Origin: Bacillota bacterium
Lineage (GTDB): Bacteria; Bacillota; Sulfobacillia; JAJYWN01; JAJZPE01
Length of the DNA: 64,000 nt
Assembly (NCBI GenBank): GCA_021787335.1
Contig: JAJYMC010000003.1
Location: forward strand, 62,001 to 126,000
Direction: 5' to 3'
Position numbers and translations under genes: made by a program. Below, in pieces: positions 34,898 to 60,639 of the stretch. How positions within the stretch are numbered: position 1 is the first letter of the stretch; every line of letters starts with the position of its first letter. The notes beneath the pieces were generated by a model. That model worked only from the letters and a program-made list of their open reading frames with translations. It was not told the origin of the DNA and ran no database searches.

Positions 34898-35332
34898 ATG
34901 AGCGATTCTCTCGTGATCCGGGAGGCGTCCCCCGCCGACGCCACGGCGTTGGCCGAACTGCTGGAGGTCTTCAACAAAGTGCCGACGACCCCGGAGACGG
35001 CGGCCCGCCGCATGGAGGCCCTGAAGGCGACGGAGACCATCCTCCTTGCTTTCATGGGCGGGGCGGCCGTCGGTCTCTGCAGCGTCAGAGTCGTGCCGTT
35101 CCTGTCGGAGGACCGGCCCTATGCCGAGGTGACGGAGCTGTTCGTGCGGCCGGAGCAGAGGCGCAGGGGCATCGCCAGGGCTTTGATGGCCCGCGCGGAG
35201 GCGGTGGCCCTCCTCAAGGGGGCGACCGACGTCTTCCTGATGACCGGCTTCAAGAACGCCACCGCGCAGGCGTTCTACCGGGCGACCGGCTACGGCGACT
35301 ACGCCCTGGCCATGCGAAAGAAGCTGTCATAG
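34898..35332 (+). CDS. GNAT family N-acetyltransferase
   Basis: 144-aa acyltransferase. It starts SLVIREASPADATALAELL and has the acetyl-CoA motif A in EVTELFVRPEQRRRGIARAL, then TGFKNATAQAFYRATGY. The substrate is unknown. ATG at 34898 is preferred to ATG at 34880 because GGAGGTCG lies about 8 bases before it. It follows the APH gene by 37 bases and ends before a strong terminator. Confidence 0.88.
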   Translation: MSDSLVIREASPADATALAELLEVFNKVPTTPETAARRMEALKATETILLAFMGGAAVGLCSVRVVPFLSEDRPYAEVTELFVRPEQRRRGIARALMARAEAVALLKGATDVFLMTGFKNATAQAFYRATGYGDYALAMRKKLS

Positions 35333-35354
35333 CCCTGAGTCAACGCAGGAACAC

Positions 35355-53944: not shown

Positions 53945-54436
53945 TTGCCGGCCAATCAACGCGCGGCCCGACCGCTCGTGGTCTACATCGACGGTGGGTC
54001 GCGCAACAACCCGGGCCCGGCGGCCATCGGCGTGGCCGTCTTCGAGCGGGAGGCGCTCAGTCGCGGCCAAGCGGCCGCGGAAGAGGGGCCCAAGCCGTTG
54101 AGCGAGGTGGGCCTGTACATCGGCCGGGCCACCAACAACGTCGCCGAGTACACGGCCCTCCTGCGCGGCCTCGAGGAGTGCCTGGCTGTCGGGGCCAGTG
54201 AGATCGAGGTCCGCTCCGATAGCGAACTTCTGGTCAAACAAATGAAGGGCGAGTATAAGGTAAAGAGCGAGGGGCTGCAACCCCTCCACGGACGGGCCCG
54301 GTCCCTGAGCCTGACCGTGCCCACGCGGTACGTCCACGTGCCGCGGGAGAAGAACCGGCTCGCCGACGCGCTCGTCAACCGGGCCCTCGACGAGTGGGAG
54401 AGAAGGAACCGCGATGCAGCCAATGGGGAGAAGTAG
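53945..54436 (+). CDS. Ribonuclease HI family protein
   Basis: 163-aa RNase H-fold protein. The four acidic sites are visible: Asp in VYIDGGSRNNPGPAAIGV, Glu in NNVAEYTALLRGLEE, Asp in VRSDSELLVKQMKGEY and Asp in EKNRLADALVNRALDE. It cleaves RNA in RNA-DNA hybrids if active. TTG at 53945 has GGGGGAGG eight bases upstream. It overlaps the next gene by 23 bases. Confidence 0.9.
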   Translation: MPANQRAARPLVVYIDGGSRNNPGPAAIGVAVFEREALSRGQAAAEEGPKPLSEVGLYIGRATNNVAEYTALLRGLEECLAVGASEIEVRSDSELLVKQMKGEYKVKSEGLQPLHGRARSLSLTVPTRYVHVPREKNRLADALVNRALDEWERRNRDAANGEK

Positions 54437-55430
54437 GGCCGTCAGGGCGGCCGCCCTGGTCCTTGCCGCTGTGGTGGTTCTGGCCCTGGCGACGGCCTTC
54501 GCACCATTGCCGTCCCTGGCCGCGGCGGCCTCGACCGAGCCGGTCTACCCGGCCCGACCCGAAGGCTACGTCAGCGACCTGGCCGGGGTCTTCACCGCGA
54601 GCCAGCTGGCCGACCTCGAGGCGATGCTCCGCGACCTCGACCGGGCGACCACGGCCGAGCTGGCCGTCGTCACGGTCAAGACCACCCAGCCGGTCACCGT
54701 CGAGGAGTATGCCGTCAAGCTCTTCGAGAAGTGGGGCATCGGCAAGAAGGGCCGTGACAACGGCGTCCTGATGCTCCTCGCCACGGACGACCGGGCGGTC
54801 AAGATCGAGGTCGGGTACGGCCTCGAGCCGGTCATCACCGACGGCACGGCCGGCTCCATCCTCGACCGTTACGTGGTGCCCCGCTTCAAGCAGAACGACT
54901 ATGCCGGCGGCCTGACCGACGGGGCCAAGGCCATCGCCAACCTCATCGCCCGCGATGCCCAGTCCCAGCTATCGCCCCAGTACCAGATCAAGGGGCGGGT
55001 CGTCGGCGGCATCCTGCCCGATTTCGTCCAGCGTGACGTGGTCATCCTGCTCGTCCTGGGCGTCCTCGGAGTCATCGTCATCGCCGCCGGGCTCAGCGGC
55101 CTCATCACCCGGCGCTGCCCCAAATGCGGCGGACGGATGTGGCGCTTCGACCGGGTGGCCGTCCACGCCACGGAGCACGAGGCCGGCCGCGGCGAGCGCG
55201 TCTACCAGTGCCGCAAGTGCGGGTACGAGACGACCAAGGACTTCGTCATCCCGCCCCTCGGGCACCCGCGCGGCGGGTCGGGCGCGGGCGGCGCCGGCGG
55301 CATGGGCCCGGGCTGGTTCGGCGGTATGGGCGGCTTCGGCGGCGGAGCCGGCGGAGGCAAGCGCGGCGGCGGTTTCGGAGGCTTCGGCGGCGGCCGCAGC
55401 GGCGGCGGCGGGGCCTCGCGGAAATGGTGA
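54414..55430 (+). CDS. TPM domain-containing membrane protein (YgcG-like)
   Basis: 338-aa exported protein. A signal peptide or anchor (AAALVLAAVVVLALATAFAP) precedes a TPM domain (YVSDLAGVFTASQLADLEAM, ELAVVTVKTTQP, EVGYGLEPVITDGTAGSI). A membrane helix (VVILLVLGVLGVIVIAAGLS) is followed by a zinc ribbon (RRCPKCGGRMW and YQCRKCGYETT) and a Gly-rich C terminus. TPM domains are tied to envelope stress or photosystem repair; the role here is unknown. ATG at 54414 lies inside the RNase H gene. Confidence 0.86.
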   Translation: MQPMGRSRAVRAAALVLAAVVVLALATAFAPLPSLAAAASTEPVYPARPEGYVSDLAGVFTASQLADLEAMLRDLDRATTAELAVVTVKTTQPVTVEEYAVKLFEKWGIGKKGRDNGVLMLLATDDRAVKIEVGYGLEPVITDGTAGSILDRYVVPRFKQNDYAGGLTDGAKAIANLIARDAQSQLSPQYQIKGRVVGGILPDFVQRDVVILLVLGVLGVIVIAAGLSGLITRRCPKCGGRMWRFDRVAVHATEHEAGRGERVYQCRKCGYETTKDFVIPPLGHPRGGSGAGGAGGMGPGWFGGMGGFGGGAGGGKRGGGFGGFGGGRSGGGGASRKW

Positions 55431-55487
55431 AAGGCCGCGGGTTTGGGGCGGCTCAGGTGTATCGGAGTGATTGGTGAAAGATGACCG

Positions 55488-55517
55488 GGGAGCCGTCGTT
55501 TGACGGCTCCCTTTCTT
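55488..55517 (+). terminator. Terminator after the TPM gene
   Basis: 10-bp perfect stem GGGAGCCGTC/GACGGCTCCC with a GTTT loop and TTTCTT. Confidence 0.9.
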
Positions 55518-55565
55518 GCTATCCGTTGGGGCCCGGACTGACCAAAAGTGGTCCAGTCTAGTCAC

Positions 55566-55595
55566 TTGACACATTCCAATTGGGAAGTGTATAGT
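55566..55595 (+). promoter_or_regulatory. MerR-type promoter with operator in the spacer
   Basis: TTGACA at 55566-55571 and TATAGT at 55590-55595 with an 18-base spacer. ACACATTCC-AATT-GGGAAGTGT (55569-55590) is an imperfect inverted repeat filling the spacer, the layout used by MerR activators. Confidence 0.75.
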
Positions 55596-55639
55596 GGAAA
55601 CCACAAACCGCCACCCGGCCGGGAGGAGGGCCCACCGCT

Positions 55640-57118
55640 GTGCTCAGAGGCCTTACCGCCAAGGAAGTCATCGCTCGCGCCCGCGAAACGGGCCTCGACA
55701 TGAGCGCCAGGACCTTTCGCCTTTATGTCGACTTGGGTCTGGTGCCCCGGCCGTCCGTGCGCAGCAATCCGCGTGGCGGCCGGTCGGGTTACTACGAATC
55801 CCGTGTCGTTGGCCTTCTGCGGGCCATCGTGCAGCTGCAGGCGCAGGGGCAGACCCTCCAACAGGTCAAGGCTTTCCTGGACCGGCTGGCGGACATCGCT
55901 CGTTCCGGCGGCCGCGACCCACTGGAGGTGCAGTTGGAGGCGGCCGAAGCCCTTGCGGACGGCGATCACGCCGGCGCGGGCGGCCCCAAAGGCGGCCAAG
56001 ACCCGCTCATCTGGCGTTCCGTCGGAGGCCCGCTGATGGCTGAGTTGATGCGGCACGGCCATCGGCCCGACCCTTCAGCGGTGGCCGAACTCAGGCTGCA
56101 GGCGGTCCTGCGCGACGGCGAGCGGGTGGAGGTGCCGTTGTTCCTGTCCCCGGCCGCGGTCGTCCATCGTCACCCGACGCGTCGAGACGACGCCGCCCTC
56201 GGGTTCATCACCGCTGCGCACGAGACTGAAGTCGAGGGCAAGGACCGGCCGCCGGTTTCCGCCACCCGGATGCGCGACTGGCTGGAGCACTCTACCGATA
56301 TCTCCCGGCCGAACTTCTTCGTCGCGGCGCGGGCGGCGCAGTCGCGACGGCCCACGGACGAAGCTTCCACCCTCCTGGGTTTCGCCGCCCTGGGCGTCGA
56401 GCCCGAGCGCCTGCGGGCCGGTCAGGTCCGCCTGGAGGGGCCGTACGTGGTCCCCGAATACCGGGGGCAGGGGCTGGGACGGGCGCTCCTGGAACAGGCC
56501 GAGGCCCGGGCCCTCGAACTCGGCGCGGGCCACATCGACGCCTCCATCGACGCCAGCGCCGCCAGGGCGGCGGCCTTCCTGAGGCACTTCGGCTATCACC
56601 CCGCGTTCTTCTACTGGGTGGCCGAGATGGATCTGGCCCGGACGGCCGCCGAGCGCCTCGAACATCGCCTTCCGAAACGCGCGACCTCCCGATTGGAGAT
56701 CAGACCGGTCGGCGACCGCGTCGAGCTCGATGCCCACCTGGTTTTCAACGCCCGGGTCCGCGCCGGGACGCCCGGCTTCTACCCGCTGACGGTCGCGGAC
56801 CTCGCCGGCCTGTCTCTCCCGAGCACCCACCTCTTCGATGCCTACCTGGACGGCCGCCTTGTCGGCGTCTCCTGGCACAGCCTGGGCGGCCCGCGCGTCT
56901 ACGTCAATGTCCTGCCCGAGTACGGCGGCACCTGGGTCGAGACCGCCCTGTGGGCTCACCTGCTGCGGTACGCCGCGGGCCAGGGCCTCAAGCGGGTCAG
57001 GACCGAGGCGGCCGGGGCTTCCGAGGCGGCCGCTCAGATCGTCATCTCGGTCGGCTTCGCCATCGACAGCATGCGAGTCTGTTATCGGAAGCGCTTCAAG
57101 GAGGCGGGTTCGCCGTGA
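55640..57118 (+). CDS. MerR-type regulator fused to two GNAT domains
   Basis: 492-aa protein. Residues about 1-75 resemble a MerR winged helix (LTAKEVIARARETGLDMSAR, TFRLYVDLGLVPRP, GYYESRVVGLLRAIVQLQ) with a following helix QTLQQVKAFLDRLADIA. A first acetyltransferase-like domain (about 150-340) contains EYRGQGLGRALLEQAEARAL. A second (about 348-488) contains NVLPEYGGTWVETALWAHLL and TEAAGASEAAAQIVISVGF, where the acetyl-CoA loop is less canonical. GTG at 55640 lies behind GGAGGAGGG. Its stop overlaps the ABC ATPase start. Confidence 0.75.
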   Translation: MLRGLTAKEVIARARETGLDMSARTFRLYVDLGLVPRPSVRSNPRGGRSGYYESRVVGLLRAIVQLQAQGQTLQQVKAFLDRLADIARSGGRDPLEVQLEAAEALADGDHAGAGGPKGGQDPLIWRSVGGPLMAELMRHGHRPDPSAVAELRLQAVLRDGERVEVPLFLSPAAVVHRHPTRRDDAALGFITAAHETEVEGKDRPPVSATRMRDWLEHSTDISRPNFFVAARAAQSRRPTDEASTLLGFAALGVEPERLRAGQVRLEGPYVVPEYRGQGLGRALLEQAEARALELGAGHIDASIDASAARAAAFLRHFGYHPAFFYWVAEMDLARTAAERLEHRLPKRATSRLEIRPVGDRVELDAHLVFNARVRAGTPGFYPLTVADLAGLSLPSTHLFDAYLDGRLVGVSWHSLGGPRVYVNVLPEYGGTWVETALWAHLLRYAAGQGLKRVRTEAAGASEAAAQIVISVGFAIDSMRVCYRKRFKEAGSP

Positions 57119-58230
57119 AGGCCGCCCCGCGGCTCGTCAAGCCGACGCTTGACCATGAGCCGGTGATCAAGGTCGAAGGTCTCATCAAAGACTACATCAT
57201 CCCGGCCCCGCCCACCCGGCGGGGCCTGACTTCCTCGCTCCGCGCGGTCTTCGCCACGCGAAAGGCCATCCGGCGGGCCCTCGAGGGCATCAGCTTCACC
57301 GTTCCGAGCGGCCAGGTCCTTGGCTTCATCGGGCCGAACGGGGCCGGCAAGACGACCACCATCAAGCTCCTGACCGGCATCCTCACCCCGACCGCGGGCA
57401 CGGTCCGTCTCCTCGGCTTCGACCCCCAGCGCGACCGCTATCGCTACACCTACCACATCGGCCTCGTCTTCGGCCAGCGGTCGCTGTTGTGGTACGACAT
57501 CCCGGTCATCGAGTCGCTACGCCTTTACGCGGACATCTATGAGATCGACCGGGCCGCCCTCAAGCGGCGCCTCGACTGGTTCTCCGAACTCCTCGGCATC
57601 GGGGAGTTCCTCCACGTCCCCGTCCGCAAGCTGTCCCTGGGCCAGCGGATGCGGGCCGAGATCGCCGCCTCGCTCCTCCATGACCCCGAGGTGCTCTTCC
57701 TCGACGAACCCACGCTGGGGCTGGACGCCGTGGCCAAGGAGCGCGTCCGCGACTTCCTGCGCCAGGTCAACCGGGAGCAAGGGACGACCATCATCCTGAC
57801 CACCCACGACATGACCGACATCGAGGCCCTTAGCGACCGCGTCCTCATCATCGACCACGGCCGGCTCATCTACGACGGGGCCGTCGAGCCGCTCAAGCGC
57901 CTTGACGACGTGCGGGTCATCCAGGCCGAGCTGGCCACCGGGGCGGACGTCGCGGCTGTCGCCGCCTCGCTGGGAGACCTGCGGGAGTACCTGGCCGAGC
58001 CGGGGTCCCTGACCGAACGTGGCACCGCCGAACCCGGCACCGCCGAACCCGGCACCGCGGAGTCCGGGACCGGCCCGCCACGCCTGGTCCTCCGCGTCCC
58101 GCGCGACCGCTCCGTCGAAGCCGTCGGCCGGCTCATGGCCGTCGCCGACCTGGCCGACCTGAGCGTCCAGCCCCCGCGGCTCGACGCGGTCATCCGTCGG
58201 GTCTACGAAAGGGGCGTGGGGGCCGGATGA
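57115..58230 (+). CDS. ABC-2 type transporter ATP-binding protein
   Basis: 371-aa exporter ATPase. Walker A is GFIGPNGAGKTTTIKLLTG, the Q-loop region VFGQRSLLWYDIPV, the signature KLSLGQRMRAEIAASLLH and Walker B EVLFLDEPTLGLDA, with H-loop TTHD. A C-terminal extension of DUF4162 type includes a repeat Gly-Thr-Ala-Glu-Pro. GTG at 57115 overlaps the stop of the MerR-GNAT gene (GTGA). Two permeases follow with overlapping starts, so the four genes form one translationally coupled operon. Confidence 0.93.
   Translation: MKAAPRLVKPTLDHEPVIKVEGLIKDYIIPAPPTRRGLTSSLRAVFATRKAIRRALEGISFTVPSGQVLGFIGPNGAGKTTTIKLLTGILTPTAGTVRLLGFDPQRDRYRYTYHIGLVFGQRSLLWYDIPVIESLRLYADIYEIDRAALKRRLDWFSELLGIGEFLHVPVRKLSLGQRMRAEIAASLLHDPEVLFLDEPTLGLDAVAKERVRDFLRQVNREQGTTIILTTHDMTDIEALSDRVLIIDHGRLIYDGAVEPLKRLDDVRVIQAELATGADVAAVAASLGDLREYLAEPGSLTERGTAEPGTAEPGTAESGTGPPRLVLRVPRDRSVEAVGRLMAVADLADLSVQPPRLDAVIRRVYERGVGAG
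58021..58065 (+). repeat. 15-bp tandem repeat in the ABC ATPase gene
   Basis: Two identical units GGCACCGCCGAACCC and a third diverged unit, encoding GTAEP, GTAEP and GTAES in the C-terminal extension. Confidence 0.85.
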
Positions 58231-59057
58231 GCCGCTTCGTGGATCCGCCGAGCCGCTCTCTTGCCGCCAAGCACCTGCGCCTGCTGGCCCGCTACTGGGT
58301 CATCACCTTCAAGGAATTCACCGCCTACACCTGGGACGTCTACCTGTCACTGGTGCAGTTCGGGCTGTACATGGCTAGGTCGTTCGTCTTCTGGTGGGCC
58401 GTCCTCGGCACGGCCGGGGCCTTCGGCGGCTGGGGCCTGCCGGAAATCGCCCTCTTCACGGCCGTCTCCTACCTACCGGGGGCCCATGAGTTGGTCTGGA
58501 ACTTCTGGAACCGGGCCTCGCTCTCCGATAAGGTCCTCCGCGGCGACCTAGACAAGTACCTGGCCCGCCCGGTCCACCCGTTGTTCGCCCTGGCCGCCGA
58601 AGACGTCAACCTCGCCGTCTTCATCCGCTATGGGCTGCCGCCGCTGGCCTTGGTGGTCGTCGTCGCCAGGGTCTATCACCTCCCGGTCGGGGCCGGGTCG
58701 TTCGTTCTCGGCTACCTCGTCCTTAGCCTGGGCAAGTTCGCCCTCGTCCTCATCCGCGCCACCGTGTCCATGCTGGCCTTCCGCCACGGCGAGGTATCCC
58801 AGGTGCAACGCTTCTTCTTCCAACTGACCGCCTTCGGCGGATACCCCGTGACCGCCTATCCCGCCGCTCTGCGAGCCTTCCTGAGCTATGTCCTGCCGGT
58901 GGGTTTCGTCGCCACCTACCCGACCCTGATCATGCTCGGCCGGTCGCCGACCGCCCCCGTCCTGGCCTTGGCCGCCGCCCTGGCCCTGGCCTGGTTGGCC
59001 GTCCTGACACGAGCCTGGCGCGCCGCCGTGGCCGGATACGATTCACCTGGGGGCTGA
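58227..59057 (+). CDS. ABC-2 family transporter permease (DUF990/ABC2_membrane_6-like)
   Basis: 276-aa membrane protein with about six helices. The N terminus has YWVITFKEFTAYTWDVYLSL, then RGDLDKYLARPVHPLFAL, a motif common in this permease class, and a C-terminal region with FQLTAFGGYPVTAYPAALR. It probably forms a heterodimer with the next permease. ATG at 58227 overlaps the ATPase stop (ATGA). Confidence 0.88.
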   Translation: MSRFVDPPSRSLAAKHLRLLARYWVITFKEFTAYTWDVYLSLVQFGLYMARSFVFWWAVLGTAGAFGGWGLPEIALFTAVSYLPGAHELVWNFWNRASLSDKVLRGDLDKYLARPVHPLFALAAEDVNLAVFIRYGLPPLALVVVVARVYHLPVGAGSFVLGYLVLSLGKFALVLIRATVSMLAFRHGEVSQVQRFFFQLTAFGGYPVTAYPAALRAFLSYVLPVGFVATYPTLIMLGRSPTAPVLALAAALALAWLAVLTRAWRAAVAGYDSPGG

Positions 59058-59917
59058 TGCGGATGAACACCACGACTTCGCGGCCGGCCCGCCGCCGGGC
59101 CGCCACTCCCGTCGTCGCCGCGGTCCGTGTCGCCCTCCGCGTCTACCTCCTCCAGCTCCGAAGGATGCGCGAGTACGGGGCCAACTTCCTGGCCGCGCTG
59201 CTCAACATCCCCGTGCTGATGGTGGTGACCTTCTTCGTCTGGAAGATCGTCTTCGGCGGTCGCCGCGAGGTCAACGGCTACAGCTTCGCGCAGGTCATCG
59301 CCTACTATATCTTGCTGCGTCTGGTCTGGCTGGTCGTCGAGAACGCCGGGACCGTGTCCGGCCAGATATGGCGGGATATCAACTCCGGCGACCTCGGCAC
59401 GTACCTCGCCCGCCCGCTCGACTACCAGCTTTACGGCTTCGCCCGAACGGCCGGACCGGCCTCCCTGTTCTTGGCCGCCGGGCTGGTCGCCTACGCCGGC
59501 GTCGCCTGGGTCTTCGGCCTGCCGCACGCTTTCACCGCCGACCGTCTGGCCTTCTTCCTGGCCTCCGTCGCGGGAGGGTTCGCCCTCTGGTACCTCTTTC
59601 AGTCCCTCCTCGGGCTGGCCGCTTTCTGGATCGGTCGCCCCGACACCCTGCGTGACTTGGCCTGGGAGTTCTACGCCCTGTTCTCCGGCCTGATCGTCCC
59701 GAATGACTTCCTGCCCGGTTTGCTGCGCGCCGCCGCCGACGCCCTGCCTTTCAAGTACCTTTATTATCTGCCCGTCGCGGGCCTCCTCGGGCGGTTGACC
59801 GCGGCCGAGATGGCCCGCGCGGCGGCAGGCCAGGCGGCCTGGGTCGTCGGCCTCTTCCTGGCCACGCGTATCGTTTGGGCCAGAGGAGTCCGGCGTTTCG
59901 AGGCCCAGGGCGGGTGA
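59057..59917 (+). CDS. ABC-2 family transporter permease (second subunit)
   Basis: 286-aa membrane protein, about six helices. It has the paralogous motif INSGDLGTYLARPLDYQLYG and FSGLIVPNDFLPGLLRAAAD. It is similar in layout to the preceding permease. ATG at 59057 shares a base with the previous stop; a second ATG lies at 59063. The exporter's substrate is unknown. Confidence 0.88.
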   Translation: MRMNTTTSRPARRRAATPVVAAVRVALRVYLLQLRRMREYGANFLAALLNIPVLMVVTFFVWKIVFGGRREVNGYSFAQVIAYYILLRLVWLVVENAGTVSGQIWRDINSGDLGTYLARPLDYQLYGFARTAGPASLFLAAGLVAYAGVAWVFGLPHAFTADRLAFFLASVAGGFALWYLFQSLLGLAAFWIGRPDTLRDLAWEFYALFSGLIVPNDFLPGLLRAAADALPFKYLYYLPVAGLLGRLTAAEMARAAAGQAAWVVGLFLATRIVWARGVRRFEAQGG

Positions 59918-60066: not shown

Positions 60067-60639
60067 ATGCGCAATACCCCTCTGATGATCCTCGGCGTCA
60101 TCGTACTGGTCTTGGTCCTGGCCATCGGCTGGGGCGTTTCCACGTATAACGGGCTCGTCCGGGCCGACCAGGCGGTCAAGGGCCAGTGGGCGCAGGTCGA
60201 GACGCAGTTGCAGCGCCGCTACGACCTCATCCCCAACCTGGCCAACTCGGTGGCCAGCTACAATCAGCACGAAGCGGGCGTTTTCACGTCCATCGCCGAG
60301 TCGCGGGCCAAGATCGGCGGCGGCATCACCCCGGAGAACGCGGCCACCCTCGACAAGCAGTATTACAGCGCGTTGTCGCGGCTGCTCGTCATCACCGAGG
60401 CCTATCCGCAGCTGAAATCGAACGAGAATTACATCAGGCTAATGGACAATCTGGAGGGCACCGAGAACCGGATCAGCACTGAGCGCCAACGCTACAACCA
60501 GGCCGTGACCGACTTCAATGCGCGCATCAAGACCGTGCCGACCGTCTTCGTTGCCCGCTTTGGCGGGTTTGGCGAGAAAACGTTCTTCCAGGCGCCACCT
60601 GAAGCGCAGTCCGCGCCGCAGGTCTTTCCCCCCAAATAG
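60067..60639 (+). CDS. lemA: LemA family protein
   Basis: 190-aa protein with one N-terminal membrane anchor (LGVIVLVLVLAIGWGVSTYN). It is followed by the LemA helical domain: AVKGQWAQVETQLQRRYDLI, PNLANSVASYNQHEAG and SNENYIRLMDNLEGTENRIS. It is expected to face outward. The function is poorly known. It is often found with TPM-domain proteins, and one lies 5 kb upstream here. Confidence 0.93.
   Translation: MRNTPLMILGVIVLVLVLAIGWGVSTYNGLVRADQAVKGQWAQVETQLQRRYDLIPNLANSVASYNQHEAGVFTSIAESRAKIGGGITPENAATLDKQYYSALSRLLVITEAYPQLKSNENYIRLMDNLEGTENRISTERQRYNQAVTDFNARIKTVPTVFVARFGGFGEKTFFQAPPEAQSAPQVFPPK

What the first reader, a model, noticed from the sequence alone, without database searches (positions are those of the whole stretch)
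55566..59917. MerR-GNAT-GNAT protein coupled to a three-gene ABC-2 exporter
Seen: a MerR-like DNA-binding domain followed by two acetyltransferase-like domains in one protein. Its promoter has an 18-bp spacer filled by an inverted repeat. The gene overlaps an ABC ATPase start, and all four genes overlap end to end. Known: MerR regulators activate promoters with long spacers when they bind drugs. Inference: this may be a self-contained sense, modify and export device, where the same polypeptide senses and acetylates a compound and induces its exporter.
Basis: partly seen in the sequence, partly recalled or inferred. Interest (0 to 1): 0.75.

Follow-up and report, generated by a model that had tools for sequence, protein, structure and literature searches.

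The report
Self-regulating acetyltransferase fused to exporter operon
A bacterial gene cassette makes one protein that looks like a DNA-binding switch joined to a double acetyltransferase, together with the three parts of a membrane pump, and the whole set travels together between distant bacteria, so it is probably a compact device for sensing and disposing of one unknown compound.

Summary
Window 55640-57118 encodes a MerR-type winged helix-turn-helix followed by two GNAT-fold domains. It overlaps, gene by gene, an ABC ATPase and two PF06182 membrane subunits. Its promoter carries a 22-bp dyad centred 8 bp from the -35, the published MerR geometry. The dyad recurs at the promoters of dnaB-linked paralogues that have no exporter. 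In 154 genomes of the class, full-length exporter-type proteins occur in four (three families), each time beside the same exporter; close TM1 homologues occur in only those four; a fifth genome keeps joint remnants. The first GNAT keeps the acetyl-CoA P-loop and a 23-residue invariant block; the second has lost the P-loop, as in Eis. I favour an autorepressor, relieved by a ligand of the GNAT pair, that controls its own acetyltransferase and exporter. Binding, catalysis, ligand and transport are all untested. New variant of the known regulator/acetyltransferase/efflux arrangement.

The parts
55566..55595 (+). sigma-A-type promoter TTGACA-18 bp-TATAGT
   Evidence: 11 of 12 consensus bases; the same 18-bp spacing in G003 and three dnaB-linked paralogues, 16 bp in G077/G061
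55569..55590 (.). 22-bp dyad (putative operator), centre 8 bp from the 3' end of the -35 box
   Evidence: 9 of 11 arm positions; same register in paralogue promoters 10/10, 8/10, 8/10; published MerR-site geometry (PMC5045206 passage)
55563..55589 (.). second, overlapping outer dyad register (10+7+10); weak here (7/10), 10/10, 9/10 and 9/10 in the three exporter-linked orthologues
55640..57118 (+). MerR HTH + tandem GNAT protein (MGG), 492 aa
55640..55909 (+). MerR-type winged HTH and following helix, residues 1-90
   Evidence: Pfam MerR_1 above cut-off; predicted H-H-wing-H-H, pLDDT 51-88 in blocks of ten
56135..56614 (+). first GNAT domain, about residues 166-325; P-loop R275-GQ-G278-L-G280; invariant block 250-272
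56690..57115 (+). second GNAT domain, about residues 351-492, P-loop lost
57115..58230 (+). ABC exporter ATPase, 4-bp GTGA overlap with MGG
   Evidence: Pfam ABC_tran 97.8 bits
58227..59057 (+). ABC-2 membrane subunit 1 (PF06182), 4-bp ATGA overlap
   Evidence: 114.6 bits, cut-off 22
59057..59917 (+). ABC-2 membrane subunit 2 (PF06182), 1-bp TGATG overlap
   Evidence: 84.2 bits, cut-off 22
55487..55512 (+). terminator-like hairpin that separates the unit from the upstream TPM-domain gene
   Evidence: 11 pairs; the scan found 5 terminator-like sites against 2.3 expected

Best explanation
A self-contained detoxification cassette for one unknown, probably amine-bearing compound. SHOWN from sequence: one protein joins a MerR-type HTH to an Eis-like tandem GNAT pair; its own promoter, the only promoter-like site the scan found before or within the four overlapping genes, carries a dyad in MerR register; the four genes are conserved and inherited as a block. 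INFERRED: a dimer of the protein binds the dyad and represses the operon. [quoted passage not shown] The first GNAT domain acetylates the compound using acetyl-CoA, the second only shapes the pocket, and the ABC-2 pump removes the compound or its acetylated form.
For: Domains. GNAT1 P-loop R-x-x-G-x-G in 4 of 4 orthologues, GNAT2 P-loop lost in 4 of 4; longest invariant run is 23 residues at GNAT1 250-272, next 5, shuffled maximum 11. This is the Eis pattern: first GNAT active, second without the P-loop Gln/Arg, substrate between them (PMC4964394 passages). Unit conservation: 4 full-length exporter-type proteins in 154 class genomes, all 4 beside ATPase, TM1 and TM2; close TM1 homologues (60-100% identity) only in those 4. 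dN/dS 0.19-0.26 for all four genes in the G077/G061 pair. Joint decay in G103. Unit absent from the same TPM-lemA interval in a genus-mate and a family-mate. Operator. Spacer literature.
Against: No biochemical evidence for binding, catalysis or transport. The operator register is not uniform: in G077/G061 the inner dyad is absent (5/10, 3/10) and an outer dyad is near perfect; G003 fits the outer register best (10/10 against 7/10). Structure models are weak (mean pLDDT 53.1 and 61.5). The substrate class is a guess: the nearest folds are polyamine, phosphinothricin and many other GNATs with tied Z. No substrate was found here for PF06182 exporters, and TM1 has no sequence relative in the PDB. 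Repression rather than activation rests on spacer length alone.
Confidence: 0.5

Rival explanations
1. Classical MerR activator: the ligand-bound dimer untwists the promoter and switches transcription on; the GNAT part senses and acetylates.
For: Dyad centred exactly 8 bp from the -35, the position PMC5045206 gives for 22-bp MerR sites. Register shared with dnaB-linked paralogues.
Against: Spacer 18 bp here and 16 bp in G077/G061. 16-18-bp mer promoters are constitutive and almost unaffected by MerR (PMC11049809). Consensus hexamers 11 of 12 suggest strong basal activity.
Confidence: 0.15
2. Pure sensor: the tandem GNAT is a repurposed ligand- or acetyl-CoA-binding domain without useful turnover, and the cassette is an ordinary regulator plus exporter.
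For: MerR-family drug regulators sense compounds and control efflux pumps (PMC9909328). The second GNAT has lost its P-loop, and the G006 homologue seems to have lost the P-loop Arg of the first.
Against: The first GNAT keeps its P-loop in all 4 exporter-linked orthologues, and its 250-272 block is the most conserved stretch of the protein.
Confidence: 0.2
3. The exporter moves an endogenous product (cell-surface lipid, sugar or peptide), and the regulator-acetyltransferase modifies that product or reports on its precursor or acetyl-CoA; not a defence against drugs.
For: A distant PF06182 exporter in G014 lies beside radical-SAM-like and carbamoyltransferase-like genes, by eye a biosynthetic cluster. 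No resistance phenotype is known.
Against: No biosynthetic genes next to the unit in the window (TPM-domain and LemA neighbours). Patchy, position-independent distribution fits an accessory cassette.
Confidence: 0.12
4. The GNAT acetylates protein, possibly the regulator itself, so that acetyl-CoA state or a deacetylase tunes DNA binding.
For: A Sir2-family deacylase gene lies at the exporter end of the cassette in G077 and beside the decayed copy in G103 (168.2 and 167.2 bits).
Against: No Sir2-like neighbour was seen beside the window or G003 units by eye; the Sir2 link is within one genus.
Confidence: 0.03

Closest known systems
BltR-Blt-BltD of Bacillus subtilis (MerR regulator, efflux pump, polyamine acetyltransferase)
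   Same: Same three jobs encoded together: MerR-family regulator, exporter, GNAT acetyltransferase. BltR regulating blt was seen in PMC9909328 passages; BltD as a spermine/spermidine acetyltransferase is recalled.
   Different: There the regulator and acetyltransferase are separate proteins and the pump is a secondary (MFS) transporter (recalled). Here HTH and tandem GNAT are one polypeptide and the pump is a three-gene ABC-2 exporter.
BmrR/TipA-type multidrug MerR regulators
   Same: N-terminal MerR HTH with a C-terminal domain inferred to sense a compound; linked to efflux or resistance (PMC9909328).
   Different: Their ligand domains are not GNATs (recalled); promoters of the family typically have 19-20-bp spacers, here 18 or 16.
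Eis and other tandem-GNAT enzymes (MshD, MAB_4324, clavulanate tandem GNAT)
   Same: Two GNAT domains in a row, one with a degenerate P-loop in Eis; best fold matches.
   Different: None of these carries a MerR HTH (recalled); Eis has an additional C-terminal sterol-carrier-like domain.
PF06182 ABC-2 exporters (COG4586/COG4587/COG3694; COG assignments recalled)
   Same: ATPase plus two PF06182 membrane subunits.
   Different: Two distant class members (28-30% identity, G014 and G042) have no such fusion in the stretches fetched; the G042 contig ends close by.
HspR and its HAIR operator (CTTGAGT-N7-ACTCAAG)
   Same: The outer dyad in the G003/G077/G061 promoters, CTTGACAG-N7-CTGTCAAG, has a similar look; HspR is a MerR-family repressor (HAIR consensus seen in PMC6102357 passage; family membership recalled).
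   Different: The CTTGA/TCAAG halves are spaced 2 bp wider and the rest of the protein is unrelated; NCBIfam HspR score 12.9 against cut-off 105.

Membership tests
MerR family | N-terminal winged HTH of MerR type | tested here: met
   PF13411 26.5 bits here, 34.3 and 42.6 in two orthologues, cut-off 21.6
MerR family | Dyad operator in the spacer of its own promoter, centre 8 bp from the -35 | tested here: met
   Window 8/10, paralogues 10/10, 8/10, 8/10; only weakly in G003 (7/10), not in G077/G061; no binding assay
MerR family | Over-long (19-20 bp) spacer required for activation by DNA distortion | tested here: not met
   18 bp in 5 of 7 homologous promoters, 16 bp in 2
GNAT superfamily, domain 1 | GNAT fold with Q/R-x-x-G-x-G/A P-loop | tested here: met
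   PF00583 60.7 bits; R275..G278.G280 in 4 of 4; VIA Z 14.9, 118 residues, 2.5 A to 8a9o
GNAT superfamily, domain 2 | GNAT fold | tested here: met
   Z 10.1, 95 residues, 2.5 A to Eis1 on a pLDDT 61.5 model; sequence alone below the Pfam cut-off
GNAT superfamily, domain 2 | P-loop for acetyl-CoA | tested here: not met
   YGGTWVE in the window, HEGTWVE in G003, YKDKSVE and YKDKSAE in G077/G061, where the P-loop should be
Eis-type acetyltransferases | C-terminal sterol-carrier-like domain after two GNATs | tested here: not met
   Protein ends with GNAT2
ABC-2 exporter (PF06182 type) | ATPase plus PF06182 membrane subunits in one operon | tested here: met
Regulator/acetyltransferase/efflux modules (BltR-Blt-BltD-like) | Regulator controls the exporter; acetyltransferase and exporter act on the same compound class | not testable with these tools
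   needs transcription and substrate assays

The most novel reading that the evidence does not exclude
A one-protein homeostat: the same polypeptide senses the compound through its enzyme active site, derepresses its own gene and the exporter, and by acetylating the compound destroys its own inducer, so that the switch resets itself in proportion to the work done. Regulation would then be set by turnover rather than by binding equilibrium.
Probability: 0.22. Interest if true: 0.75.

Novelty: new variant of a known kind. Interest (0 to 1): 0.5.

Why it matters
Sensing, modification and export are usually encoded by separate proteins. Here the sensor and the enzyme appear to be one chain, kept next to one exporter in three bacterial families and in different chromosomal places. 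If it works as proposed, it is a compact natural sensor-enzyme, testable with one protein and one promoter, and its exporter-free paralogues beside dnaB offer a natural comparison. The 23-residue invariant block suggests one shared ligand in all carriers, so finding it in one would probably identify it for all.

Tried and rejected
Chance adjacency: rejected by the conserved unit in unrelated neighbourhoods.

The outer dyad (55563-55589) as the sole operator: considered because it is near perfect in G003, G077 and G061. In the window and the paralogues the inner dyad is better. I keep both; the family may have changed register.

Operon-wide or genome-wide regulon: the strict inner pattern (3 mismatches allowed) hit only the C23 paralogue promoter in the own genome. 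That pattern is built on the paralogue and misses the window. The outer pattern hit the window, the C23 paralogue promoter and one C1 site. No wider regulon is claimed.

Spread outside the class: single-protein search of 398 phylum genomes found only the own genome at 1e-10. A 9-row profile gave 140 of 398 genomes with matches at 1e-6; among the rows listed (not all were listed) only G000 rows covered both HTH and GNAT, the rest covered single domains or parts of the GNAT region. First genome-contig scan with the single protein: none; with the alignment: 3 loci, the same genomes as G003, G077, G061. Plasmids and phages: no match at 1e-5. MerR-GNAT fusions of other kinds may exist elsewhere; I did not survey them.

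Literature: searches for MerR with GNAT or acetyltransferase fusion terms (one search asked about MarR-GNAT) listed no paper recognisable, by title and start of abstract, as about a MerR-GNAT fusion. That covers only this open library. One listed paper (PMC2701414, passages) treats GNAT genes paired with Xre or RHH genes, not fused to MerR. PF06182/COG names gave 4 papers, none recognised as identifying a substrate; only one passage of one of them (PMC3188533) was read, where COG4586 is listed under antibiotic resistance.

Fold: VIA rows for the full model cover residues 170-321 only; MerR folds are not in that list, which says nothing about the HTH.

Full report
What is there. The gene at 55640-57118 (GTG start, ribosome site GGAGGAGGG) encodes 492 residues. 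Residues 19-82 match Pfam MerR_1 above its cut-off, and residues 243-319 match GNAT acetyltransferases strongly. A third part, about residues 351-492, is below the Pfam cut-off alone (16.9 against 20.7 bits). Folded separately with three orthologues it gives a modest model (pLDDT 61.5) whose best matches are GNATs, with the mycobacterial Eis1 first by Z (10.1, 95 residues, 2.5 A). The whole protein, on a weak model (pLDDT 53.1), finds tandem GNAT proteins first (3tt2, 7q3a). The next three genes are an ABC ATPase and two PF06182 membrane subunits, with overlaps GTGA, ATGA and TGATG.

Conservation of the unit. In 154 genomes of the class, nine hold a protein of this type. Four carry the full-length exporter-linked form: the window's genome and G003, G077, G061, from three families. 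In all four the ATPase, TM1 and TM2 genes follow it. Close relatives of TM1 (60-100% identity) occur in only those four of 154; the next two are 28-30% identical. G103, of the same genus as G077 and G061, keeps fragments of the fusion gene, the ATPase and TM2 and has no TM1 match. The four exporter-linked proteins lie on one side of a fully supported branch (100/99) from the five others. Between G077 and G061 dN/dS is 0.19-0.26 for all four genes. Named records for three carriers are Bacillota bacterium FK3.bin120 and two Candidatus Fermentithermobacillaceae.

Mobility. In the window the unit lies between a TPM-domain gene and lemA. In the genus-mate G001 and the family-mate G002 the same interval holds other genes: DUF3160 and a PGA_cap gene were identified in G001, and G002 has a large gene there that resembles the DUF3160 one by eye. 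In G003, TPM and lemA are adjacent elsewhere in the genome and the unit is in another place. The cassette therefore appears to have changed place as a block.

Promoter and operator. TTGACA-18-TATAGT at 55566-55595 matches 11 of 12 consensus bases. Alone that is only mildly unusual (0.013 over 18 centres). But the dnaB-linked paralogues, which have no ABC genes of this kind beside them, carry the dyad in exactly that register: 10/10 in G000, 8/10 in G001 and G002. The centre is 8 bp from the -35 box, the value given for 22-bp MerR-family sites in PMC5045206 (passages read). Against simplicity: in G003, G077 and G061 the better dyad is a wider one centred 4.5 bp from the -35 (10/10, 9/10, 9/10), and in G077/G061 the inner dyad is gone (5/10, 3/10) and the spacer is 16 bp. 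For the G004 and G006 homologues no such promoter was seen in the upstream stretch printed (by eye); they were left out of the seven promoters compared.

Why repression is preferred. MerR activators work on 19-20-bp spacers (PMC9909328 passages). Engineered mer promoters with 16-18 bp are constitutive (weakly at 16 bp) and almost unaffected by MerR (PMC11049809 passages). MerR-type repressors on normal spacers are known, for example CvkR at tnsB with a 17-nt spacer (PMC9938897 passages). All seven promoters compared here have 16 or 18 bp. This is an argument from sequence, not a measurement.

Why an enzyme with one ligand. The first GNAT keeps R-x-x-G-x-G in four of four orthologues; the second has lost it in four of four. 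Residues 250-272, ending just before the P-loop, are 23 consecutive invariant columns among proteins only 44-51% identical to the window protein; the next longest run is 5 and 2000 shuffles gave at most 11. In Eis only the first GNAT is active, the second lacks the P-loop Gln/Arg, and the substrate sits between them (PMC4964394 passages). The dnaB-linked paralogues keep a P-loop but not the block, which suggests another ligand; G006 appears to have lost the P-loop Arg (by eye).

Verdict. The sense, modify and export idea is the best overall reading, but with a derepression switch and with every functional step untested. It is a new variant of a known arrangement (regulator, acetyltransferase and exporter together), made unusual by fusing the first two.

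Noticed in passing
L041:6354-7763 (own genome C23): A paralogue of the fusion protein lies directly downstream of the replicative helicase gene dnaB, with a perfect 10+2+10 dyad in its own 18-bp-spacer promoter and no exporter; similar copies sit at the same locus in G001 and G002.
   Followed up: partly
L034:2653-3414 and L036:4899-5660: A Sir2-family deacylase gene lies at the exporter end of the cassette (or its remnant) in one genus, next to an acetyltransferase system.
   Followed up: partly
window 54414-55430 and 60067-60639: The interval between the TPM-domain gene and lemA holds different cargo in relatives: the exporter cassette here, DUF3160/PGA_cap genes in G001 and a similar large gene in G002.
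   Followed up: partly
window 34904-35335: Another GNAT-like reading frame with one in-frame TAG inside the match, found by the 9-row profile.
   Followed up: no
L070:839-9000 (G014): A distant PF06182 exporter sits beside glycosyltransferase-like, carbamoyltransferase-like and two radical-SAM-like genes, which looks like a natural-product cluster by eye.
   Followed up: no
L035 near 7806: The G061 copy lacks the in-frame ATG that the G077 copy has, by a one-base difference at the start; this may be an assembly error.
   Followed up: no
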